The notes under the pieces: generated by a model
Told to the model about the DNA's origin: nothing
Databases searched by the model: none
Seen by the model: only the letters and a program-made list of their open reading frames with translations
In this document: positions 52,305 to 59,619 of the stretch, piece after piece
Position numbering within the stretch: position 1 is the stretch's first letter
How the letters are laid out: every line of letters begins with the position of its first letter
Assembly (NCBI RefSeq): GCF_016734765.1
Contig: NZ_JAERQE010000006.1
Span: forward strand, 118,534-182,533
Reading direction: 5' to 3'
DNA length: 64,000 nt
Source: Microvirga soli
GTDB lineage: Bacteria; Pseudomonadota; Alphaproteobacteria; Rhizobiales; Beijerinckiaceae
Program-made: the position numbers and the translations under genes

Positions 52305-54494
52305 TCAGGCTTGGAGCCAGTGCCTGAGCCGGGACAGGCGCGGCTCCTCCTCCGAGCCGACGGCCTGAACGAGGGCGGCGCGGCTGCCCACGAGGATCAC
52401 CAGACGGCTTGCCCGCGTCACCCCGGTGTAGAGGAGCTTGCGCCGCAGCATCGAGGCCTGCTGCAAGGCAACCGGTATGACCACGGCCGGATACTCGGAG
52501 CCCTGCGCCTTGTGGATCGTCACGGCGTAGGCCAAAGCCAGCTCATCGAGTTCCTGAAGCGAATAGACGACCAGCCTGTCCTCGAAGGCAACGGTGAGCT
52601 CGCCATGATCGCGGCGCACCTCGCGCACGATGCCGACTTCGCCGTTATAGACGTCACGCTCGTAATCGTTGCGAACCTGCATGACCTTGTCGCCGGGCCC
52701 ATAGCTCCAACCCGCCCGATGCAGGCTCTCAAGGCCGGGCGGATTGAAGAGCTGCTGCAGTTCTCCGTTCAGCATATGGGTGCCGAGGCGCCCGCGGTTC
52801 ATGGCGCACAGCACCTGCACGTCCCGCACCGGATCGAGTCCGAACCGCCGTGGAATCCGGTCCCGGATCAGAATGGTCATCTTGGCCATGACCTCGGACG
52901 GCGTGTCGGCTTCGACGAAATAGAAATCCGAGTCCGGCTGATGTCCGAGGTCAGGTACAAGCCCGCGATTGATTGCATGGGCGACGGTGATGATGCGGCT
53001 CTCCCGCTCCTGCCGGAACACCTCCTTGAGATGCACGACAGGAATAGCCTCGGATGCGATGATGTCCGACAGGATCTGCCCCGGACCGATGGAGGGCAGC
53101 TGATCCACGTCGCCCACGAGAACCAGCGACGCTTCATCCGGCAGCGCACGCAGCAGCGCGGCCATCAGGCGGATGTCGAGCATCGAGGTCTCATCGACCA
53201 CGAGAAGGTTGCAGTCGAGCGGCATCTTCGCATTGCGCCGGAAGCCGCCCTCGGATGCTTCCAGCAAACGGTGGACGGTCTTGGCCGGAAAGCCCGTACT
53301 TTCCGACAGCCGCTTCGCAGCCCGCCCGGTCGGGGCGCACAGGGCGATCGTCAGTTCGTGCTGCGCGCACAGATGCGTCAGGCTTCGGATCAACGTCGTC
53401 TTGCCCACACCCGGCCCGCCGGTGACGACGAGCACCTTCGAGCGGCAGGCAGAGGCCAGGGCCTCGCGCTGGCTCGGCGAGTACGACACACCGATGGCGG
53501 CTTCTGCCTCGGCGATCACTTGCTCAGGGTCAAACTCGTTCCAGGGATGCAGACCCTGGGCAATCTCCTGCAGGCGCTGCGCGATGAAGAGTTCGGCACC
53601 GTAGAGGCCTTTCAGGAAGATGCTGCGCTGCTCATCGAGTTGGTCGGCCACGAGCTGACCTGCCGCACATTGCGCATCGAGCACGGGCTTCACTTCAACT
53701 TCGGGAATCTCAAGCAGGCGGCTCGCCTGTCGCAGCAGCTCCTCTGCCGGCAACCCGGAATGGCCTTCCTTTACGGCCTCAGAGAGAACATGCGTGAGAC
53801 CGGCCTGAAGCCTGATTGCGGCGGTGGGTTCCACATTGAGTTGCAGCGCCACCTGATCGGCGAGCGCGAACTCGAAGCCCGGAATGTCGAGGACGAGCCG
53901 GTAGGGATTGGCTTTGACGATGTCGATGGCGCCGACGCCATAGGCGCGGTAGATGCGCGTGAGCAGAAACCCTCCGATGCCATGCGCATTGAGGAACGCC
54001 GCAATCTCCTTCAGGGCCCGGTGCTCGGCCCAGGCCTCGCCGATGCTCAGAGCCTTGGCCATCGCGATGCCATGCACGCGCGCGAGCTCATGTGGCTTCG
54101 TCTCGATCACGTCGAGAATGCGCGCGCCAAACGATGCAATGAGCCTCTGGGCAAGGGAAGGTCCAACACCTTTCAGGAGGCCGGAGCCGAGAAAGCGCTG
54201 CAGGTCTTCCGCGGTGGTCGGCGCTGTGGTCATCAGCTCGCTCGCGCGGAACTGAACCCCGTGATTGCGGTCGTGCAGCCATCCGCCGTTTGCTTCCACC
54301 ACCTCGCCGATGGCGACAGACGGCGCATGACCGACAACAACAACGGGCTTGCGGTGCCCGCGCGCTTTCACGCGCAGCACGCAGAAGCCGGTTTCATCGT
54401 TGTGGAACGTCACCCGCTCGATGGAACCGACGAGATGTTCGGAGAGGGATAGCGCCTCCTGATCGGAAGCAGCCATGGCGGAGGTTTTCGGCAT
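52305..54494 (-). CDS. RecD2-like ATP-dependent DNA helicase
   Basis: A 729-residue superfamily 1B helicase of the RecD2/TraA type. The N-terminal OB-like and HhH region ('GLLKGVGPSLAQRLIASFG', about 105-123) precedes Walker A 'VTGGPGVGKTTLIRSL' (about 360), Walker B 'LLVVDETSMLD' and the C-terminal UvrD-like motif 'AVTIHKAQGSEYPAVVIP'. It unwinds DNA 5' to 3' and is not in a RecBCD complex; no recB or recC gene is near. It begins the repair-gene-rich region that runs to 63.6 kb. A start at 54476 is also possible. Two short palindromes separate it from the next upstream gene. Confidence 0.9.
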   Translation of the reverse strand: MPKTSAMAASDQEALSLSEHLVGSIERVTFHNDETGFCVLRVKARGHRKPVVVVGHAPSVAIGEVVEANGGWLHDRNHGVQFRASELMTTAPTTAEDLQRFLGSGLLKGVGPSLAQRLIASFGARILDVIETKPHELARVHGIAMAKALSIGEAWAEHRALKEIAAFLNAHGIGGFLLTRIYRAYGVGAIDIVKANPYRLVLDIPGFEFALADQVALQLNVEPTAAIRLQAGLTHVLSEAVKEGHSGLPAEELLRQASRLLEIPEVEVKPVLDAQCAAGQLVADQLDEQRSIFLKGLYGAELFIAQRLQEIAQGLHPWNEFDPEQVIAEAEAAIGVSYSPSQREALASACRSKVLVVTGGPGVGKTTLIRSLTHLCAQHELTIALCAPTGRAAKRLSESTGFPAKTVHRLLEASEGGFRRNAKMPLDCNLLVVDETSMLDIRLMAALLRALPDEASLVLVGDVDQLPSIGPGQILSDIIASEAIPVVHLKEVFRQERESRIITVAHAINRGLVPDLGHQPDSDFYFVEADTPSEVMAKMTILIRDRIPRRFGLDPVRDVQVLCAMNRGRLGTHMLNGELQQLFNPPGLESLHRAGWSYGPGDKVMQVRNDYERDVYNGEVGIVREVRRDHGELTVAFEDRLVVYSLQELDELALAYAVTIHKAQGSEYPAVVIPVALQQASMLRRKLLYTGVTRASRLVILVGSRAALVQAVGSEEEPRLSRLRHWLQA

Positions 54495-54649: not shown

Positions 54650-55321
54650 TTAGGCTGCCTTCTTGGTTGGCCAGCCGAGTTCGACGAGCCGCGCCTTGGC
54701 GTAATCGCGGATCTCGTCGCGAATGCCCTCCGGCAGCTCGGCGAGCACCTTCTGCGTGTCGGCATGGAGCATCAGGTCCGTGACCGCATTGATGGTCTTG
54801 GCCTTCTTGATCTTCGCCTTCAGATCATCCTCGACCTTGTCGTCGGAGGCAGCGGCTTCAACCCTGCCCTTCTGCGTCTGAGGCTCGGTCTTCTCGATCT
54901 CCACATGCGGATCGGCAAAGCCCGGGCGACCCTGCTTGAACTCATCCGCCTCTTCCTCGGAGTAGACGTAGCCGTGCAGCTCGATGAGCTTGAGAATCAC
55001 GCGGTCCTTCGCCCGCTTTTCGGCCATGGCATAGACATAAGCCGCCTGCTTGCCTGAGACGCGATAGTTCACGCCGATCAGCGCCTCACCGATCGACCAT
55101 TCGACCCGCTCGCCCATGCGGCCGGTGACTTGGATCACCGCCTCATCGCGCTCGGCGCGGATGATCTTGGGCTCGTCGAAGACGACATTGGCCTGGGCGG
55201 CGATGCGCTCAAGAGTCTTGTGGTAGACCACGGCCGTTCCCTGGACCCGCCACACATTGCCGGCCATCGGCTCACCGAACTTGGCCAGCACCTCGGAAAT
55301 TTTCTTATCGGTCGTATTCAT
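54650..55321 (-). CDS. SOS-controlled protein, possible Rad52/Erf-like strand-annealing protein
   Basis: A 223-residue protein of a family also seen, to my recollection, in phages of alphaproteobacteria. The N-terminal two thirds read 'VWRVQGTAVVYHKTLERIAA', 'VIQVTGRMGERVEWSIGEA' and 'AAYVYAMAEKRAKDRVILKL', a beta-rich then helical order that resembles Rad52/Erf-type single-strand annealing proteins. The rest is an acidic linker and a helical tail. I cannot prove the fold by reading. A LexA box (55396-55410) lies over its -10 element, so it should be induced by DNA damage. It has its own terminator. Confidence 0.6.
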   Translation of the reverse strand: MNTTDKKISEVLAKFGEPMAGNVWRVQGTAVVYHKTLERIAAQANVVFDEPKIIRAERDEAVIQVTGRMGERVEWSIGEALIGVNYRVSGKQAAYVYAMAEKRAKDRVILKLIELHGYVYSEEEADEFKQGRPGFADPHVEIEKTEPQTQKGRVEAAASDDKVEDDLKAKIKKAKTINAVTDLMLHADTQKVLAELPEGIRDEIRDYAKARLVELGWPTKKAA

Positions 55322-55682: not shown

Positions 55683-56333
55683 ATGTCCGCGCAAGCGATC
55701 CTTGACCTTTCGGATCGACGCCCCGCCCGCCGTGGCGGCGCCCGTCGGGCTGCCAAGCGCCCGGCGACGCCGCTGACGCGAAACGCCCTGATCGCGGACT
55801 TCCTGGCGCTCTGCGAACTTGATGCGGACGTGGAATCTCTGCGTGCGCCGGCCGATCCGGCAAACTTCACCATCGGTGATGAGACGGTCGAGCATGTGGC
55901 CGATTTCGAAATCGTCCGCGACGGCTCGGCTTACCTCATCGATGTGGTGACGGACGACGACCTGCTGGCCCATCCCCTGCGCGCGGCTTCGATCCATGGC
56001 ATCACGGCCGGCGACGGACGTCCCTTCCGGGTCGAGACGGCAGCCAATATACGGGCCGAGCCGCGTTTTACCACCATGCGTCTGATCATGGCCTGCAAGC
56101 GCACGCCGGTGACGGCTGGCGACCGGGTGCGCATTCTGCACCAACTCGACGAACTCGGCACTATGCGGCTTGTCGATTGCGCCAGTGCCGTGATGAACAC
56201 GCAGGATGGGGTTGCGGCCGTTCTGGCGCTCGCCTGTGAGGGCCTGGTCGCGGTCGATATCAGCCGCCCGATCCTGCCCGAGACGCAGGTGCGCCGGCGG
56301 CGCCTGCCCTTCGCGGATCCTTTTGCCTTCTAG
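55683..56333 (+). CDS. SOS-controlled protein of unknown function, weak nuclease-like segment
   Basis: A 216-residue protein. The N-terminus is very basic (RRPARRGGARRAAKRP). The middle reads 'VADFEIVRDGSAYLIDVVTD', which resembles the D-x(n)-E/D-x-V core of TnsA-like and other restriction-fold nucleases, although no clear catalytic Lys follows. The tail is 'RRRRLPFADPFAF'. I do not recognise the family with certainty. GGAGG lies just upstream of the start (55674-55678). It is under its own LexA box and overlaps the convergent nuclease gene by 4 bases. Confidence 0.65.
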   Translation: MSAQAILDLSDRRPARRGGARRAAKRPATPLTRNALIADFLALCELDADVESLRAPADPANFTIGDETVEHVADFEIVRDGSAYLIDVVTDDDLLAHPLRAASIHGITAGDGRPFRVETAANIRAEPRFTTMRLIMACKRTPVTAGDRVRILHQLDELGTMRLVDCASAVMNTQDGVAAVLALACEGLVAVDISRPILPETQVRRRRLPFADPFAF

Positions 56334-57331
56334 CCTTGCGCGGCGTGCCGCTCTACCGCCTCGCCCAGCAGCGAGCGCACGATGGCGCGGACCGCATCCG
56401 AGGTGCTGTCGGTCGCGAACTTGGAATCGATCTCATCGCGAATGATCGAGCCGTCGCCGCTGCGCTTCAGCTCCGTCGAGGATTCCGCCTGGAGCAGGGT
56501 CACGAAGGCGCTCTCCACCTCCCGCGCCACCAGCGCCTCGTCGGCCGCGTCGACCACCCGTCCCGTGAGATCGAAAACATTGCTCTCGAACGGCAGCGCT
56601 TGTGCTTCCAGTTGCCCGCTGCCATCGAGAATCCAGGCGCGCGGCACGTGATCCACCAGATCGACGGATTGACGCGTGATGTTGCCGGGGTTGAGCCAGC
56701 GTGTGCGGCCCGCAAGAACAGCCTTCTGCGTCTTGTGGATGTGCCCGTTGATCAACACATCGCAGCCCTCCACCGCGAAAGGCGGAACGGCACCGGGATA
56801 GCCGCCGTCGAAGGCGATGTCATGATGCGTGAACCAAGCCTGGAAATCGGCCCCGACAAAGGAGCCGCGCGCATCGGTCGGGATGGCTTGGCCGTAGGGC
56901 GTCATGCCGACACCAACTCGGCGGCTCCCTATCTGGAACTCGGTCACGGGAGCCGATGTGGCCACCACATCGACCACATCGCAGAGCCCGAGCAGCGCCA
57001 GCGAGTCGCTGTCGGTGAGCGTCGTGTGCTGGATGTCGTGGTTACCCACGTTCACGATGGGCCGGTGGTGGAAGTTCTTCAGGATGCGGACGAGCTGGTT
57101 CTTGAGTGCCATGTCGGTCTCGACCGGCCGGTCGAAAAGATCGCCGAGGATGACCACCGCGAGCTGCCGCTCATTGGCGATGGACACACAGCGCTCCAGC
57201 TTGCCCAGCACCGCCTGAGGCCAGACGGCATCCTTGCGCCGCCCGGGACGCCGCGATCCCACATGCGGATCCCCGATCACGAGGATGCCCTCGCAGGCAA
57301 CGGCGGGAAGACGATCTCCGGTCAGGATCAT
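56330..57331 (-). CDS. Mre11/SbcD-like metallophosphoesterase
   Basis: A 333-residue calcineurin-like nuclease. The phosphoesterase motifs are complete: 'VIGDPHVG' (D21, H23), 'ILGDLFDR' (D64), 'VNVGNHD' (N97, H98), 'FTHHD' and 'LINGHIHK'. After about residue 230 comes a short acidic tail that could be a capping region. The gene overlaps the permuted Rad50-like ATPase by ATGA, as sbcD and sbcC do elsewhere. This supports a nuclease-ATPase complex acting on DNA ends or hairpins. It differs from PdeM at 31859. Confidence 0.88.
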   Translation of the reverse strand: MILTGDRLPAVACEGILVIGDPHVGSRRPGRRKDAVWPQAVLGKLERCVSIANERQLAVVILGDLFDRPVETDMALKNQLVRILKNFHHRPIVNVGNHDIQHTTLTDSDSLALLGLCDVVDVVATSAPVTEFQIGSRRVGVGMTPYGQAIPTDARGSFVGADFQAWFTHHDIAFDGGYPGAVPPFAVEGCDVLINGHIHKTQKAVLAGRTRWLNPGNITRQSVDLVDHVPRAWILDGSGQLEAQALPFESNVFDLTGRVVDAADEALVAREVESAFVTLLQAESSTELKRSGDGSIIRDEIDSKFATDSTSDAVRAIVRSLLGEAVERHAAQG

Positions 57332-59148
57332 GCGGTGAGCCGCTCCGTGGGCGCATGGGTGTGGTGGTCCAGCAGGGTCTCAGGCTTCACGGGCGAACCG
57401 CAGGTGGGGCACAATCCGCCTGTTTCCTCGACGAGGCGCGCCATCTCGGCCTGCAAGGATGCTAGCCCCTCGTCGACCTGAGTCATACGGCTTCTGGCGA
57501 TTTGGGAGGCCGCATGAAGATCCTTCATCCGCTTGAGAATATTTTGTGCCGAAGCGGTGTTTTCAAGGGCCGGCACGATTTCCGGCAAGCCATGCAACGC
57601 CTTCAGTCTCGCTTGGGCACGCTTCAGATCACGACCGAGTTGCAGCACCTGCCGCCCGATGCGCTCACGCTCGCGGGCGCGCTCGACCGCACGGGTGAGA
57701 TCGGCAAGCTGCTCCGCCGGGGGCAGCATCTCGGTGATGCGGGCGCGCCCCTCGGCTGTCATGAGCCTCTTGCGAGTCGTGGCAAGCTGCGCCGCATGAT
57801 TTTGCAATCGCTCAAGCTGCGCGGCTTCCATGGCTAACCGCTCCGCCTGCCGGCGCGCAGCGGAAATCTTTTCCTTCAGCGGCTCGAGTTCGGCAAGCCC
57901 GTCGAGCGTTTCGCTCAACGCGATCAGTTCCCGCTCGCCGTTTCGCACGAGATCGTTGTCACGGCGGCAGCGCTCGCGGTGGATGACGAGCATGTCGCGG
58001 ATATAGCCCGCCTCCTGCCCGATAGAGAGAACCGCGGAGCGGCGTGATGGCGTTTCGCCGAGCAGGAACACGGGAAATTTCTGGTGCGCGATATGGACGT
58101 CGAGATCCTCGACCTTGCGGATGCGGATGAGATCGGCCACCCAATCCGGCACAGCACGCCCGCCGGTCTCGTAGCGCATGCCCTGAGCCTCGACCACGGA
58201 CCCATCCGCCTCATGCAGCGACCAGATGTTGACGGGCGAACGACGCGGCTGTCGCGTGAAGCGTAAAAGACGGTTTCCGGCAACGCCGATCTCGACCATG
58301 GCAGCCTTCGCGCCGGCACGCACCAAGCTGTCGCGAGCCTCGCCGTAGAAAACGGCGCGCAGAGCACGGATAAAGGTGGACTTGCCGCGGTTGTTCGGCC
58401 CGATCAGCGCATTGACGCCGGGACCCAGATGCAGCGTCGCATCCGTATAGGCCTGCACGTTGAAGAGACGGATGAAGCGCAGACCCGGCTGGGCATCGTC
58501 CCACTGTGCGCTGGTGTCGGAGGACAGCACCTCGACGCCGGTGGCGGGCTCGCCGGCGATACGTGCGATGTGAAACTTGCCGGAGAACTGCGACAGGTCA
58601 TGGTGCGAGACGGCAAGGCACTGCACGCCAAGCCGCGCCGCGCCGTCTTCCAGCACTGTGTAGAAGGACGACACGCGCTCCGGCGCGATCCAGCAATCCG
58701 CTTCGTCCAGCGCCAGGAAACGCGCCACATCGGCCTTGACCACGGCAATCAGGCGCAGGGCCATGCCGATCACATTGGTGAGCGCGCCGCCATTGTCCTC
58801 CAGCACGTCCTCAAGTGAGCCGTCGGGACGCCGCACGCAGATGTCGAGGGACGCCAGCCCCCGCTCCGTCGACAGCTCCAGCGCCACGGGCTTCTCGCCC
58901 GGCAGAACCTCCTGCACGAGCGCCGTCAGCAGCGTTTCGAAGGCCGACAGGCTGCGGCGGCTCGCTGAGCCGTGAACGGCCTCGATGAAGGCTTCCACCT
59001 CGTCCTTGACCGCGAGACGGCCCTTGGCGAACTCGATCTCACGCGTCAGCTCATCGACCCGCGCGCGGATGGCGTCGCGCCGGCCCTCAAGCCGCGCGAG
59101 CAGCGCTTCCGCGCGGGTGACGTCGTGCGTGGCGGACGGCAGCATCAA
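57328..59148 (-). CDS. Rad50/SbcC-like ATPase with a circularly permuted head
   Basis: A 606-residue ABC-type ATPase whose motifs occur in an unusual order. N-terminal coil about 10-75; signature-like 'EDNGGALTNVIGMAL' (GG at 120-121); Walker B 'FLALDEADCW' (D148, E149); H-loop 'AVSHHD' (H182); then Walker A 'GPNNRGKST' (250-258) and a Q-loop-like 'HIAHQKFPVFLLGE'; a long coiled coil about 370-575; and a zinc-hook CPTCG at 580-584, close to the C-terminus. In Rad50/SbcC the order is Walker A, coil, hook, coil, signature, Walker B. This protein equals that order cut at the hook and rejoined at the termini. All catalytic motifs are present, so it should be active. It lies between a coiled-coil gene and an Mre11-like nuclease, with ATGA overlaps on both sides. 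Confidence 0.85.
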   Translation of the reverse strand: MMLPSATHDVTRAEALLARLEGRRDAIRARVDELTREIEFAKGRLAVKDEVEAFIEAVHGSASRRSLSAFETLLTALVQEVLPGEKPVALELSTERGLASLDICVRRPDGSLEDVLEDNGGALTNVIGMALRLIAVVKADVARFLALDEADCWIAPERVSSFYTVLEDGAARLGVQCLAVSHHDLSQFSGKFHIARIAGEPATGVEVLSSDTSAQWDDAQPGLRFIRLFNVQAYTDATLHLGPGVNALIGPNNRGKSTFIRALRAVFYGEARDSLVRAGAKAAMVEIGVAGNRLLRFTRQPRRSPVNIWSLHEADGSVVEAQGMRYETGGRAVPDWVADLIRIRKVEDLDVHIAHQKFPVFLLGETPSRRSAVLSIGQEAGYIRDMLVIHRERCRRDNDLVRNGERELIALSETLDGLAELEPLKEKISAARRQAERLAMEAAQLERLQNHAAQLATTRKRLMTAEGRARITEMLPPAEQLADLTRAVERARERERIGRQVLQLGRDLKRAQARLKALHGLPEIVPALENTASAQNILKRMKDLHAASQIARSRMTQVDEGLASLQAEMARLVEETGGLCPTCGSPVKPETLLDHHTHAPTERLTA

Positions 59149-59441
59149 CGCTCGTCTCCGAGCTGCCTGAGGCGCGTCTCGACTTCGCGCAGAGCCACAC
59201 CGAACTCCTCTGCGAGCGCCGCATTTCGTGCCTGCGCTTCCTCGATCAGGCTTTGAATCTGCACCTCGTCATCGGTGCCGAGCTCGGCCTTGGCGAGCGC
59301 ACGCGCCTCGTCGATTTCACGCGTCAGGCGCTCGACCTCGCCCTCCGCCCGGATGCGTTCCGCCCGCAGCTTGTCGAAGGTCTTGCGCATCTCCTCCAAG
59401 CGGCGAAGCTGGTCTGTTTCGAGGCGTGACAGGCTGGTCAT
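59145..59441 (-). CDS. Small coiled-coil protein encoded with the permuted ATPase
   Basis: A 98-residue, strongly charged helical protein, almost wholly heptad-like ('RLEEMRKTFDKLRAERIRAE', 'EVERLTREIDEARALAKAEL', 'VALREVETRLRQLG'). The ATG at 59441 has GGAG 10 bases upstream; a TTG at 59462 is also in frame. It overlaps the ATPase start by ATGA and is the first gene of the three-gene operon. The ATPase has a long C-terminal coil but a shorter N-terminal one, so this protein may pair with the coil. That is inference; no known family was recognised. Confidence 0.75.
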   Translation of the reverse strand: MTSLSRLETDQLRRLEEMRKTFDKLRAERIRAEGEVERLTREIDEARALAKAELGTDDEVQIQSLIEEAQARNAALAEEFGVALREVETRLRQLGDER

Positions 59442-59619
59442 GGAATTGCGGCTCCGCTGCAAAGGAATGGTCGAGCTTCAGTTATCGTCAGCGCTATTTC
59501 GTCGCAACGACTTTGCCTCTTTTTGGTCTGGATCGGGGACGATGTCTTCAATCCTGGCACCCGACCCTCCACATAGTATCCGTTACTCCAAGATTACAGT
59601 CTTAAACAGCGGACTTTGC

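What the first reader, a model, noticed from the sequence alone, without database searches (positions are those of the whole stretch)
57328..59148. Rad50/SbcC-like ATPase with a circularly permuted head and a C-terminal zinc hook
Seen in the sequence: the signature-like GG (120-121), Walker B (D148-E149) and H-loop (H182) come before Walker A (250-258), and a CPTCG hook is at 580-584 of 606. In Rad50/SbcC these occur as Walker A, coil, CxxC hook, coil, signature, Walker B. The observed order is exactly what arises if the canonical protein is cut at the hook and the old termini are joined. All motifs are intact and the gene is coupled by ATGA overlap to an Mre11-like nuclease, so it looks functional. 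I know of no described Rad50-family member with this order. A hook at the chain terminus would change how the coils close and dimerise.
Basis: partly seen in the sequence, partly recalled or inferred. Interest (0 to 1): 0.93.

Follow-up and report, generated by a model that had tools for sequence, protein, structure and literature searches.

The report
Rad50-type ATPase with reversed halves
Microvirga and scattered other bacteria and large plasmids carry a Rad50-like ATPase whose two head halves are joined in reverse order; it likely arose when a gene already split into pieces, as relatives in phages and other bacteria have it, was fused back the other way round, and it is predicted to work with a neighbouring nuclease on DNA ends.

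Summary
Residues 1-212 match Rad50 C-lobes and 220-376 Rad50/SMC N-lobes (models against solved structures). In 91 ORFs holding both lobes, C comes first in all; 73 are distinct, six named catalytic residues never vary in them, and all 70 not cut by a contig end finish in CxxC. 'Cut at the hook and rejoined' needs changing: (1) about 45 residues of coil 2 remain against about 200 of coil 1, and a small coiled-coil match lies upstream of 91 of 91; (2) phages, Bacillota and one unnamed phylum have the same parts as separate genes; (3) the fused form is one clade (support 99), sister to split systems whose gene order is its cyclic rotation, so fission then fusion is likelier; (4) CxxC is usually followed by two more His/Cys (65 of 70 fused, 110 of 120 split, 2 of 9 canonical hooks), suggesting a one-chain zinc site, not half a dimerising hook. 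Function (ATP-gated DNA-end nuclease or tether) is inferred. Ten open-access searches showed me no such protein.

The parts
57328..59145 (-).
58510..59145 (-). Residues 1-212: short coil-2 remnant (about 1-45) plus Rad50 C-terminal lobe (signature GG 119-120, Walker B D147-E148, H-loop H181)
58018..58488 (-). Residues 220-376: Rad50/SMC-type N-terminal lobe with Walker A (G249, G254, K255)
57424..58014 (-). Residues 378-574: coil 1 in four predicted helices (378-416, 420-472, 477-518, 531-574)
   Evidence: NCBIfam Rad50 model PRK03918 aligns 391-588 to 259-447 of 878, E 3.7e-9, far below its cut-off
57331..57411 (-). Residues 579-605: C-terminal CPTCG with His-containing tail, predicted zinc site
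   Evidence: low model confidence at the end; no zinc measured
59145..59441 (-). Small coiled-coil protein, 98 aa from ATG (105 aa from the TTG at 59462); stop overlaps the ATPase start (TGATG)
   Evidence: small-coil match upstream of 91 of 91 permuted ORFs
56330..57331 (-). Mre11/SbcD-like metallophosphoesterase, 333 aa; ATGA overlap with the ATPase; all five catalytic motifs looked for are present
   Evidence: Metallophos 3e-7; phrog_100 SbcD-like 5.1e-14; own copy L001: DxH, GDLFD, GNHD, THHD, GHxH; no PDB sequence match at 0.01

Best explanation
The gene encodes a Rad50/SbcC-type ATPase whose head lobes are joined in reverse order (C-lobe, then N-lobe) and whose chain ends in a CxxC motif with a short tail; with the small coiled-coil protein and the Mre11-like nuclease encoded beside it, it likely forms an ATP-gated complex that processes or holds DNA ends. 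SHOWN by calls: the order, the invariant catalytic residues, the match of each half to the matching half of solved Rad50/SMC heads (model against structures), the recurring three-gene set, and separate-gene relatives. INFERRED, origin: an ancestral Rad50 was split after the hook and inside coil 2, giving N-lobe+CxxC, small coil and C-lobe genes; from a gene order N / nuclease / small / C, a rotation of the operon (for example tandem duplication and loss) put C before N and the two fused through a variable linker. INFERRED, working: two chains would dimerise head to head when ATP binds, the signature of one against the Walker A of the other, as in Rad50, and so gate the nuclease. Coil 1 would fold back on itself rather than run as a long two-stranded rod, with the small protein packing against part of it, and its tip would be closed by a zinc site within one chain.
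For: C-lobe alone folds (pLDDT 90.3) and its five best Foldseek matches are Rad50 C-lobe chains; whole model pLDDT 86.4, best Foldseek matches the two chains of P. furiosus Rad50, residues 220-376 on the N-lobe. 91 of 91 ORFs C-lobe first; invariant motifs. A Bacillota split C-lobe finds fused copies directly by tblastn: 3e-7 (Pseudomonas sp. FeN3W, not fetched), 9e-7 (Leaf58, fetched). Split sets: 31 of 33 viral contigs N/small/C/nuclease, 27 distinct C-lobes; N/nuclease/small/C in all 8 genomes with a standalone C-lobe of 199 searched. Tree of 57 taxa: permuted monophyletic 99, sister clade = those 8; C-lobe alone 98, N-lobe alone 78. Gap between the two lobe matches 4-76 residues. Extra ligands: 65 of 70 and 110 of 120 against 2 of 9 canonical hooks. 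Nuclease motifs DxH, GNH, HH and GHxH all found in 75 of the 87 partners found.
Against: No activity, complex or zinc content has been measured. The N-lobe match does not tell Rad50 from SMC: VIA Z for both is 10-11, and the top row is an unrelated helical protein. Small-coil length is nearly constant (64-97 aligned) while estimated coil 1 runs from 155 to 428 residues (53 of 55 loci; Spearman -0.44), so the small protein cannot be the full antiparallel partner of coil 1. Five loci of one clade (Pseudomonas x2, Vibrio, Alteromonas, Aeromonas plasmids) keep the ATPase but their partner lacks DxH, GNH, HH and GHxH, so nuclease activity is not the conserved function there. The hook control is small (9, three of them picked because a hook was seen), its windows (12 and 23 residues) are not the same as the tails compared, canonical hooks mostly have one His there too, and related sequences make the Fisher p values too strong. 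Support from the N-lobe alone is only 78, and the tree has one outgroup. Tail and zinc site are low-confidence in the model.
Confidence: 0.72

Rival explanations
1. True circular permutation of a single-chain Rad50: cut at the hook, old termini joined, and the terminal CxxC still pairs two chains through one shared zinc.
For: Lobe order and terminal CxxC fit; a Rad50 model aligns coil 1 up to about its hook. The five fused and ten split chains with fewer than two extra ligands could only work this way.
Against: Most of coil 2 is missing; split relatives exist and the fused clade is nested among them; two extra His/Cys ligands in most copies.
Confidence: 0.1
2. A DNA tether or chromosome/plasmid organiser rather than a nuclease machine; the metallophosphoesterase is a structural subunit.
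For: In five Pseudomonas, Vibrio, Alteromonas and Aeromonas plasmid loci the partner lacks the nuclease motifs while the ATPase is intact; closest single-chain NCBIfam model is the archaeal SMC-related ASRP, 8e-16, below its cut-off.
Against: All four motifs searched are present in 75 of 87 partners, the window's included, and the split phage systems also carry the phosphoesterase (their motifs were not counted).
Confidence: 0.2
3. An anti-phage or anti-plasmid defence system of the Lamassu kind.
For: PADLOC's best match is LmuB, 1e-10, over N-lobe to hook only.
Against: The nuclease and the small protein match no PADLOC model at 0.01; plasmids carry the fused and phages the split system themselves; in most Microvirga loci fetched the neighbouring genes are conserved.
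Confidence: 0.06
4. Assembly error or local rearrangement.
For: None.
Against: Same order in 91 ORFs from independent genomes, plasmids and public assemblies.
Confidence: 0.005

Closest known systems
Rad50/SbcC with Mre11/SbcD
   Same: Both head lobes, catalytic motifs, a coil running to a CxxC, and a calcineurin-type phosphoesterase partner
   Different: Lobe order reversed; CxxC at the chain end and not at a coil apex; most of coil 2 absent; extra small coiled-coil gene; extra candidate zinc ligands
Archaea-specific SMC-related proteins (ClsN/Sph; PMC9389158, passages read)
   Same: Best single-chain NCBIfam match (NF045487, 8e-16, cut-off not reached; model 593 positions); zinc hook motif
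   Different: Canonical order with Walker A at the N-terminus and the hook in the hinge; that paper reports no consensus in flanking genes
Mre11/Rad50 fusion proteins of PMC3175470 (2011; passages read)
   Same: Plasmids and phages; in Anaerostipes and Bacillus phage 0305phi8-36 one P-loop NTPase segment 'was not observed', as expected if the C-lobe is a separate gene
   Different: Nuclease fused in front of the ATPase; no permutation or split described in the passages. Similar nuclease/N-lobe fusions with separate small coil and C-lobe genes are seen here in Geobacillus and Paenibacillus plasmids. I did not examine the 2011 loci; two tblastn searches of phage records with split C-lobes did not list that phage
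Lamassu LmuB
   Same: SMC-like ATPase model of 611 positions; N-lobe to hook match 1e-10
   Different: Single chain in canonical order with a hook (recalled); partners of the LmuA/LmuC kind not found
PHROG families 16465 (exonuclease) and 15167 (ATPase)
   Same: These are the split N-lobe and C-lobe proteins; the window's gene matches both, 4.7e-19 and 1e-7
   Different: Two separate families in PHROGs; fused in one chain here

Membership tests
Rad50/SbcC | N-terminal lobe with Walker A | tested here: met
   located in the middle of the chain; the fold alone fits SMC as well
Rad50/SbcC | C-terminal lobe with signature, Walker B and H-loop | tested here: met
Rad50/SbcC | Order Walker A - coil - hook - coil - signature - Walker B in one chain | tested here: not met
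   C-lobe before N-lobe in 91 of 91
Rad50/SbcC | CxxC hook at the apex between two coil arms of similar length | tested here: not met
   CxxC is followed by only 7-58 residues (70 chains); coil-2 remnant about 45 residues
Rad50/SbcC | Zinc hook that joins two chains | tested here: inconclusive
   CxxC present in 70 of 70, but two or more His follow in 65 of 70; no zinc or dimer data
Rad50/SbcC | Mre11/SbcD-type phosphoesterase partner | tested here: met
   found downstream of 87 of 91 (three of the other four end at a contig end; L069 not explained); all four motifs in 75 of 87; none of the four in five loci
Rad50/SbcC | ATP-dependent head dimerisation and nuclease gating | not testable with these tools
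   no complex prediction or biochemistry available
SbcC (PF13558 Walker B model) | Match over the curated cut-off | tested here: not met
   no match at 1e-3 in the window's genome; control genomes ring in 12 of 14
Archaea-specific SMC-related proteins | NCBIfam NF045487 cut-off (300 bits) and canonical order | tested here: not met
   57.8 bits; order reversed
Lamassu (LmuB) | LmuA/LmuC partners in the operon | tested here: not met
   the two partner proteins match no PADLOC model at 0.01

The most novel reading that the evidence does not exclude
There is an unrecognised branch of Mre11-Rad50 machines in which Rad50 is not one chain: its two head lobes and a piece of its coil are separate proteins in phages, plasmids and some bacteria, its arm ends in a one-chain zinc knuckle that replaces the dimerising zinc hook, and one descendant has sewn the lobes together backwards. 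The two-armed rod joined by a zinc hook would then be dispensable for this class of machine.
Probability: 0.5. Interest if true: 0.88.

Novelty: new variant of a known kind. Interest (0 to 1): 0.78.

Why it matters
Rad50 and SMC proteins are defined by lobes at the two chain ends held together by a folded-back coil. A working permuted head, with its split relatives still extant, would show that this wiring can be broken and rebuilt. It would give a natural test of what the coil and the zinc hook are for, and would explain orphan 'half Rad50' genes in phages and plasmids. In Microvirga it appears to be the usual Rad50-type ATPase: 32 of 36 relatives have a match, while the SbcC model PF13558 reaches its cut-off in 4 of 36 (12 more have weak matches at 1e-3 or better).

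Tried and rejected
Considered and dropped: natural in-frame fusion of the small coil with the ATPase (P0112, 711 aa): the small-coil part runs into what reads as a frameshifted stretch, so it is not evidence for a fusion and was not folded. Small coil as full antiparallel partner of coil 1: rejected by lengths. Fused copies in viral contigs: none (10 stretches matched the pattern, no relative confirmed); a scan with the L094 C-lobe also found none; a scan with A7 gave 8 loci, of which L166 and L167 were new and looked at. Scan of 398 Pseudomonadota genomes: 377 give a hit at 1e-3, but at most three candidates a genome were scored, and only G000 and G225 match strongly over both lobes; the other rows shown cover short stretches, mostly around Walker A, so the tally is not a count of the family. 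In one search, 17 of 199 genomes pass 1e-8: 8 standalone C-lobes and 9 single-chain frames of 1210-1236 aa. First canonical-hook control failed because the held DNA was too short in 27 of 31 loci; of the 20 longer regions then fetched 5 had a CPxC and 15 no CxxC. PDB sequence search with the nuclease gave nothing at 0.01. C-lobes without an N-lobe found in the stretch held: L095, L137, L138, L164, L167. The neighbours p216 and p223 gave no convincing family. The split chains counted are the 120 listed of 273 found.

Paper searches: (on ASRPs); they list at most 20 papers each, and held more than were listed. None of the titles or abstracts listed names a permuted or split Rad50; subscription papers and bioRxiv are not held. 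Papers opened, passages only: PMC3175470, PMC7824862, PMC3710099, PMC9389158, PMC10853773; all others seen as search listings only.
Full report
What is there. On the minus strand of a Microvirga contig (genus from named matches at 95% identity) lie three overlapping genes: a 98-aa coiled-coil protein (59145-59441), a 605-aa ATPase (57328-59145) and a 333-aa metallophosphoesterase (56330-57331). Stop and start overlap as TGATG and ATGA. Pfam finds the Walker A half (AAA_23, 6.9e-11, residues 226-459) and nothing in the first 212 residues. PHROGs sees both halves as two families: phrog_16465 at 223-519 and phrog_15167 at 3-184.

It is conserved. In 91 ORFs with both lobes (20 from genome relatives, 10 from plasmids, one Microvirga paralogue, 60 from named genomes) the C-lobe comes first in all. 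Among 73 distinct sequences D147, E148, H181, G249, G254 and K255 never change; the terminal CxxC is present in 70 of 70, the other three being cut by contig ends. Small-coil matches lie upstream of 91 of 91 and phosphoesterase matches downstream of 87 of 91. Of the 62 relatives found in named genomes, 60 are fused, one is split (L094) and one is a fragment (L095). The range is narrow but wide-flung: 32 of 36 Microvirga relatives, Methylobacterium and scattered Proteobacteria, and large plasmids of Bosea, Rhizobium, Methylorubrum, Acidiphilium, Variovorax, Pseudomonas, Vibrio, Alteromonas and Aeromonas. Only 2 of 398 sampled Pseudomonadota genomes gave a strong match over both lobes (three candidates a genome scored). 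The SbcC model PF13558 finds nothing in the window's genome and reaches its cut-off in 4 of 36 Microvirga relatives; it also misses 2 of 14 control genomes, so absence of canonical SbcC is not proven.

Split relatives. In Bacillus phage vB_BboS-125 the same parts are three genes: N-lobe with coil and terminal CPLC (471 aa), small coil (78 aa) and C-lobe (211 aa), with a phosphoesterase ORF downstream. Of 33 viral contigs, 31 (27 distinct C-lobes) carry N-lobe / small coil / C-lobe / phosphoesterase in that order; L134 ends inside the N-lobe, and L130 ends 1.5 kb after it with no further part found. Plasmids of B. velezensis and Alkaliphilus have split sets; Geobacillus and Paenibacillus have the phosphoesterase fused to the N-lobe piece, with small coil and C-lobe separate; Cetobacterium has the N-lobe and its hook segment apart too. 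In the unnamed phylum of L094, 8 of 199 genomes hold a standalone C-lobe, and all 8 have the order N-lobe / phosphoesterase / small coil / C-lobe, as do a Microcystis phage and L166. That order, rotated, is small / C-N / phosphoesterase, the order of the fused operon. Five loci show a C-lobe but no N-lobe in the stretch held (L095, L137, L138, L164, L167).

Direction of evolution. In a tree of 57 taxa (27 fused, 29 split, one canonical; 398 columns, LG+G4) the fused form is one clade (99) inside the split ones, sister to the L094 clade (100). C-lobe alone gives 98, N-lobe alone 78, and fused plus L094 clade 100 and 94. The outgroup is one haloarchaeal Rad50, so the root is weak; the fused-versus-rest division does not depend on it. 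The gap between the two lobe matches varies from 4 to 76 residues, median 9, as expected of a fusion joint. I infer fission first, then one reversed fusion.

Arm and tip. Coil 1 is predicted as four helices with breaks; coil 2 survives as about 45 residues. The small coil is near-constant in length while estimated coil 1 varies from 155 to 428 residues (53 of 55 loci), so it cannot pair along the whole arm; the arm presumably folds back. After the terminal CxxC, 65 of 70 fused proteins have two or more His (tails of 7-58 residues), and 110 of the 120 listed Bacillota split proteins two or more His/Cys within 6-17 residues, at 20% against a 1.8% background. Of 9 canonical hooks examined, 2 had two such residues in the next 12 or 23 and the rest one. 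A one-chain zinc site is therefore more likely than a half hook; this is a prediction.

Function. By family knowledge (Rad50-Mre11, SbcCD), I infer ATP-gated end processing and holding. All four motifs searched (DxH, GNH, HH, GHxH) are found in 75 of 87 partners. Against a universal nuclease role, none of the four is found in five loci that form one clade (Pseudomonas x2, Vibrio, Alteromonas, Aeromonas), although in three of four tested the N-terminus still matches a profile built without them (E-values for a four-sequence search 3.5e-18, 3.5e-8, 2e-7; the fourth, 0.008, is weak). A gammaproteobacterial MAG outside that clade (Agitococcus, L093) keeps them. PADLOC gives only ATPase matches, LmuB best.

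Known or new. The parts are known kinds; the arrangement is not named in anything I saw in ten searches of the open-access library (limits under Tried and rejected). A 2011 paper noted Mre11/Rad50 fusions missing one NTPase segment (PMC3175470, passages), which the split arrangement would explain, but I did not confirm it in those loci and the phage named there was not among the C-lobe hits. I file this as a new variant of the Rad50 kind, not as a member, since two defining features, order and apex hook, are tested and not met.

Noticed in passing
L025, L026, L027, L030, L033: In one clade (Pseudomonas, Vibrio, Alteromonas and Aeromonas plasmids) the phosphoesterase partner lacks DxH, GNH, HH and GHxH while the permuted ATPase is intact: a probable pseudo-nuclease subunit.
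   Followed up: partly
L031 2414-4894 (G007): One Microvirga relative carries a second, 826-aa permuted ATPase (33% identical) with a much longer coil that shows LPxLP-like spaced repeats by eye, beside its own small coil and nuclease.
   Followed up: partly
window 54650-55321 and 55683-56333: Two proteins of unknown family lie near the operon and are kept beside it in most Microvirga, Methylobacterium and Aurantimonadaceae-type loci fetched (57-99% identity); the first faintly recalls phage single-strand annealing proteins (recalled, not tested).
   Followed up: partly
L161 1121-3526; L162 1073-3598: Geobacillus and Paenibacillus plasmids encode a phosphoesterase fused to a Rad50 N-lobe ending in CPxC, with small coil and C-lobe as separate genes.
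   Followed up: partly
L165 2442-4453: Cetobacterium plasmid (Fusobacteriota): N-lobe and coil-hook segment are also separate ORFs, so the Rad50 equivalent is in four pieces.
   Followed up: no
L138, L139, L137: A 485-kb uncultured phage, a Microcystis phage and Microbacterium phage Magritte carry standalone Rad50-type C-lobes (unannotated, 'hypothetical protein' and 'exonuclease').
   Followed up: partly
P0004, P0008, P0077: Sources name some permuted copies 'phage shock protein A' or 'Tfp pilus assembly protein PilO', perhaps misled by the coil.
   Followed up: no
L228-L242: 15 of 20 canonical SbcC regions fetched, chosen among the best PF13558 scores, have no CxxC in the ORF stretch looked at: hookless SbcC may be common in Pseudomonadota.
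   Followed up: no
window 52305-54494: RecD2-type helicase near the operon, found there in many but not all Microvirga loci; the Pseudomonas Leaf58 and Vibrio plasmids have a UvrD-type helicase gene beside theirs.
   Followed up: partly
L042 (and L013): In Microvirga lupini Lut6 the nuclease ORF found is short (267 aa) and lacks the later motifs, so the partner may be broken there.
   Followed up: no
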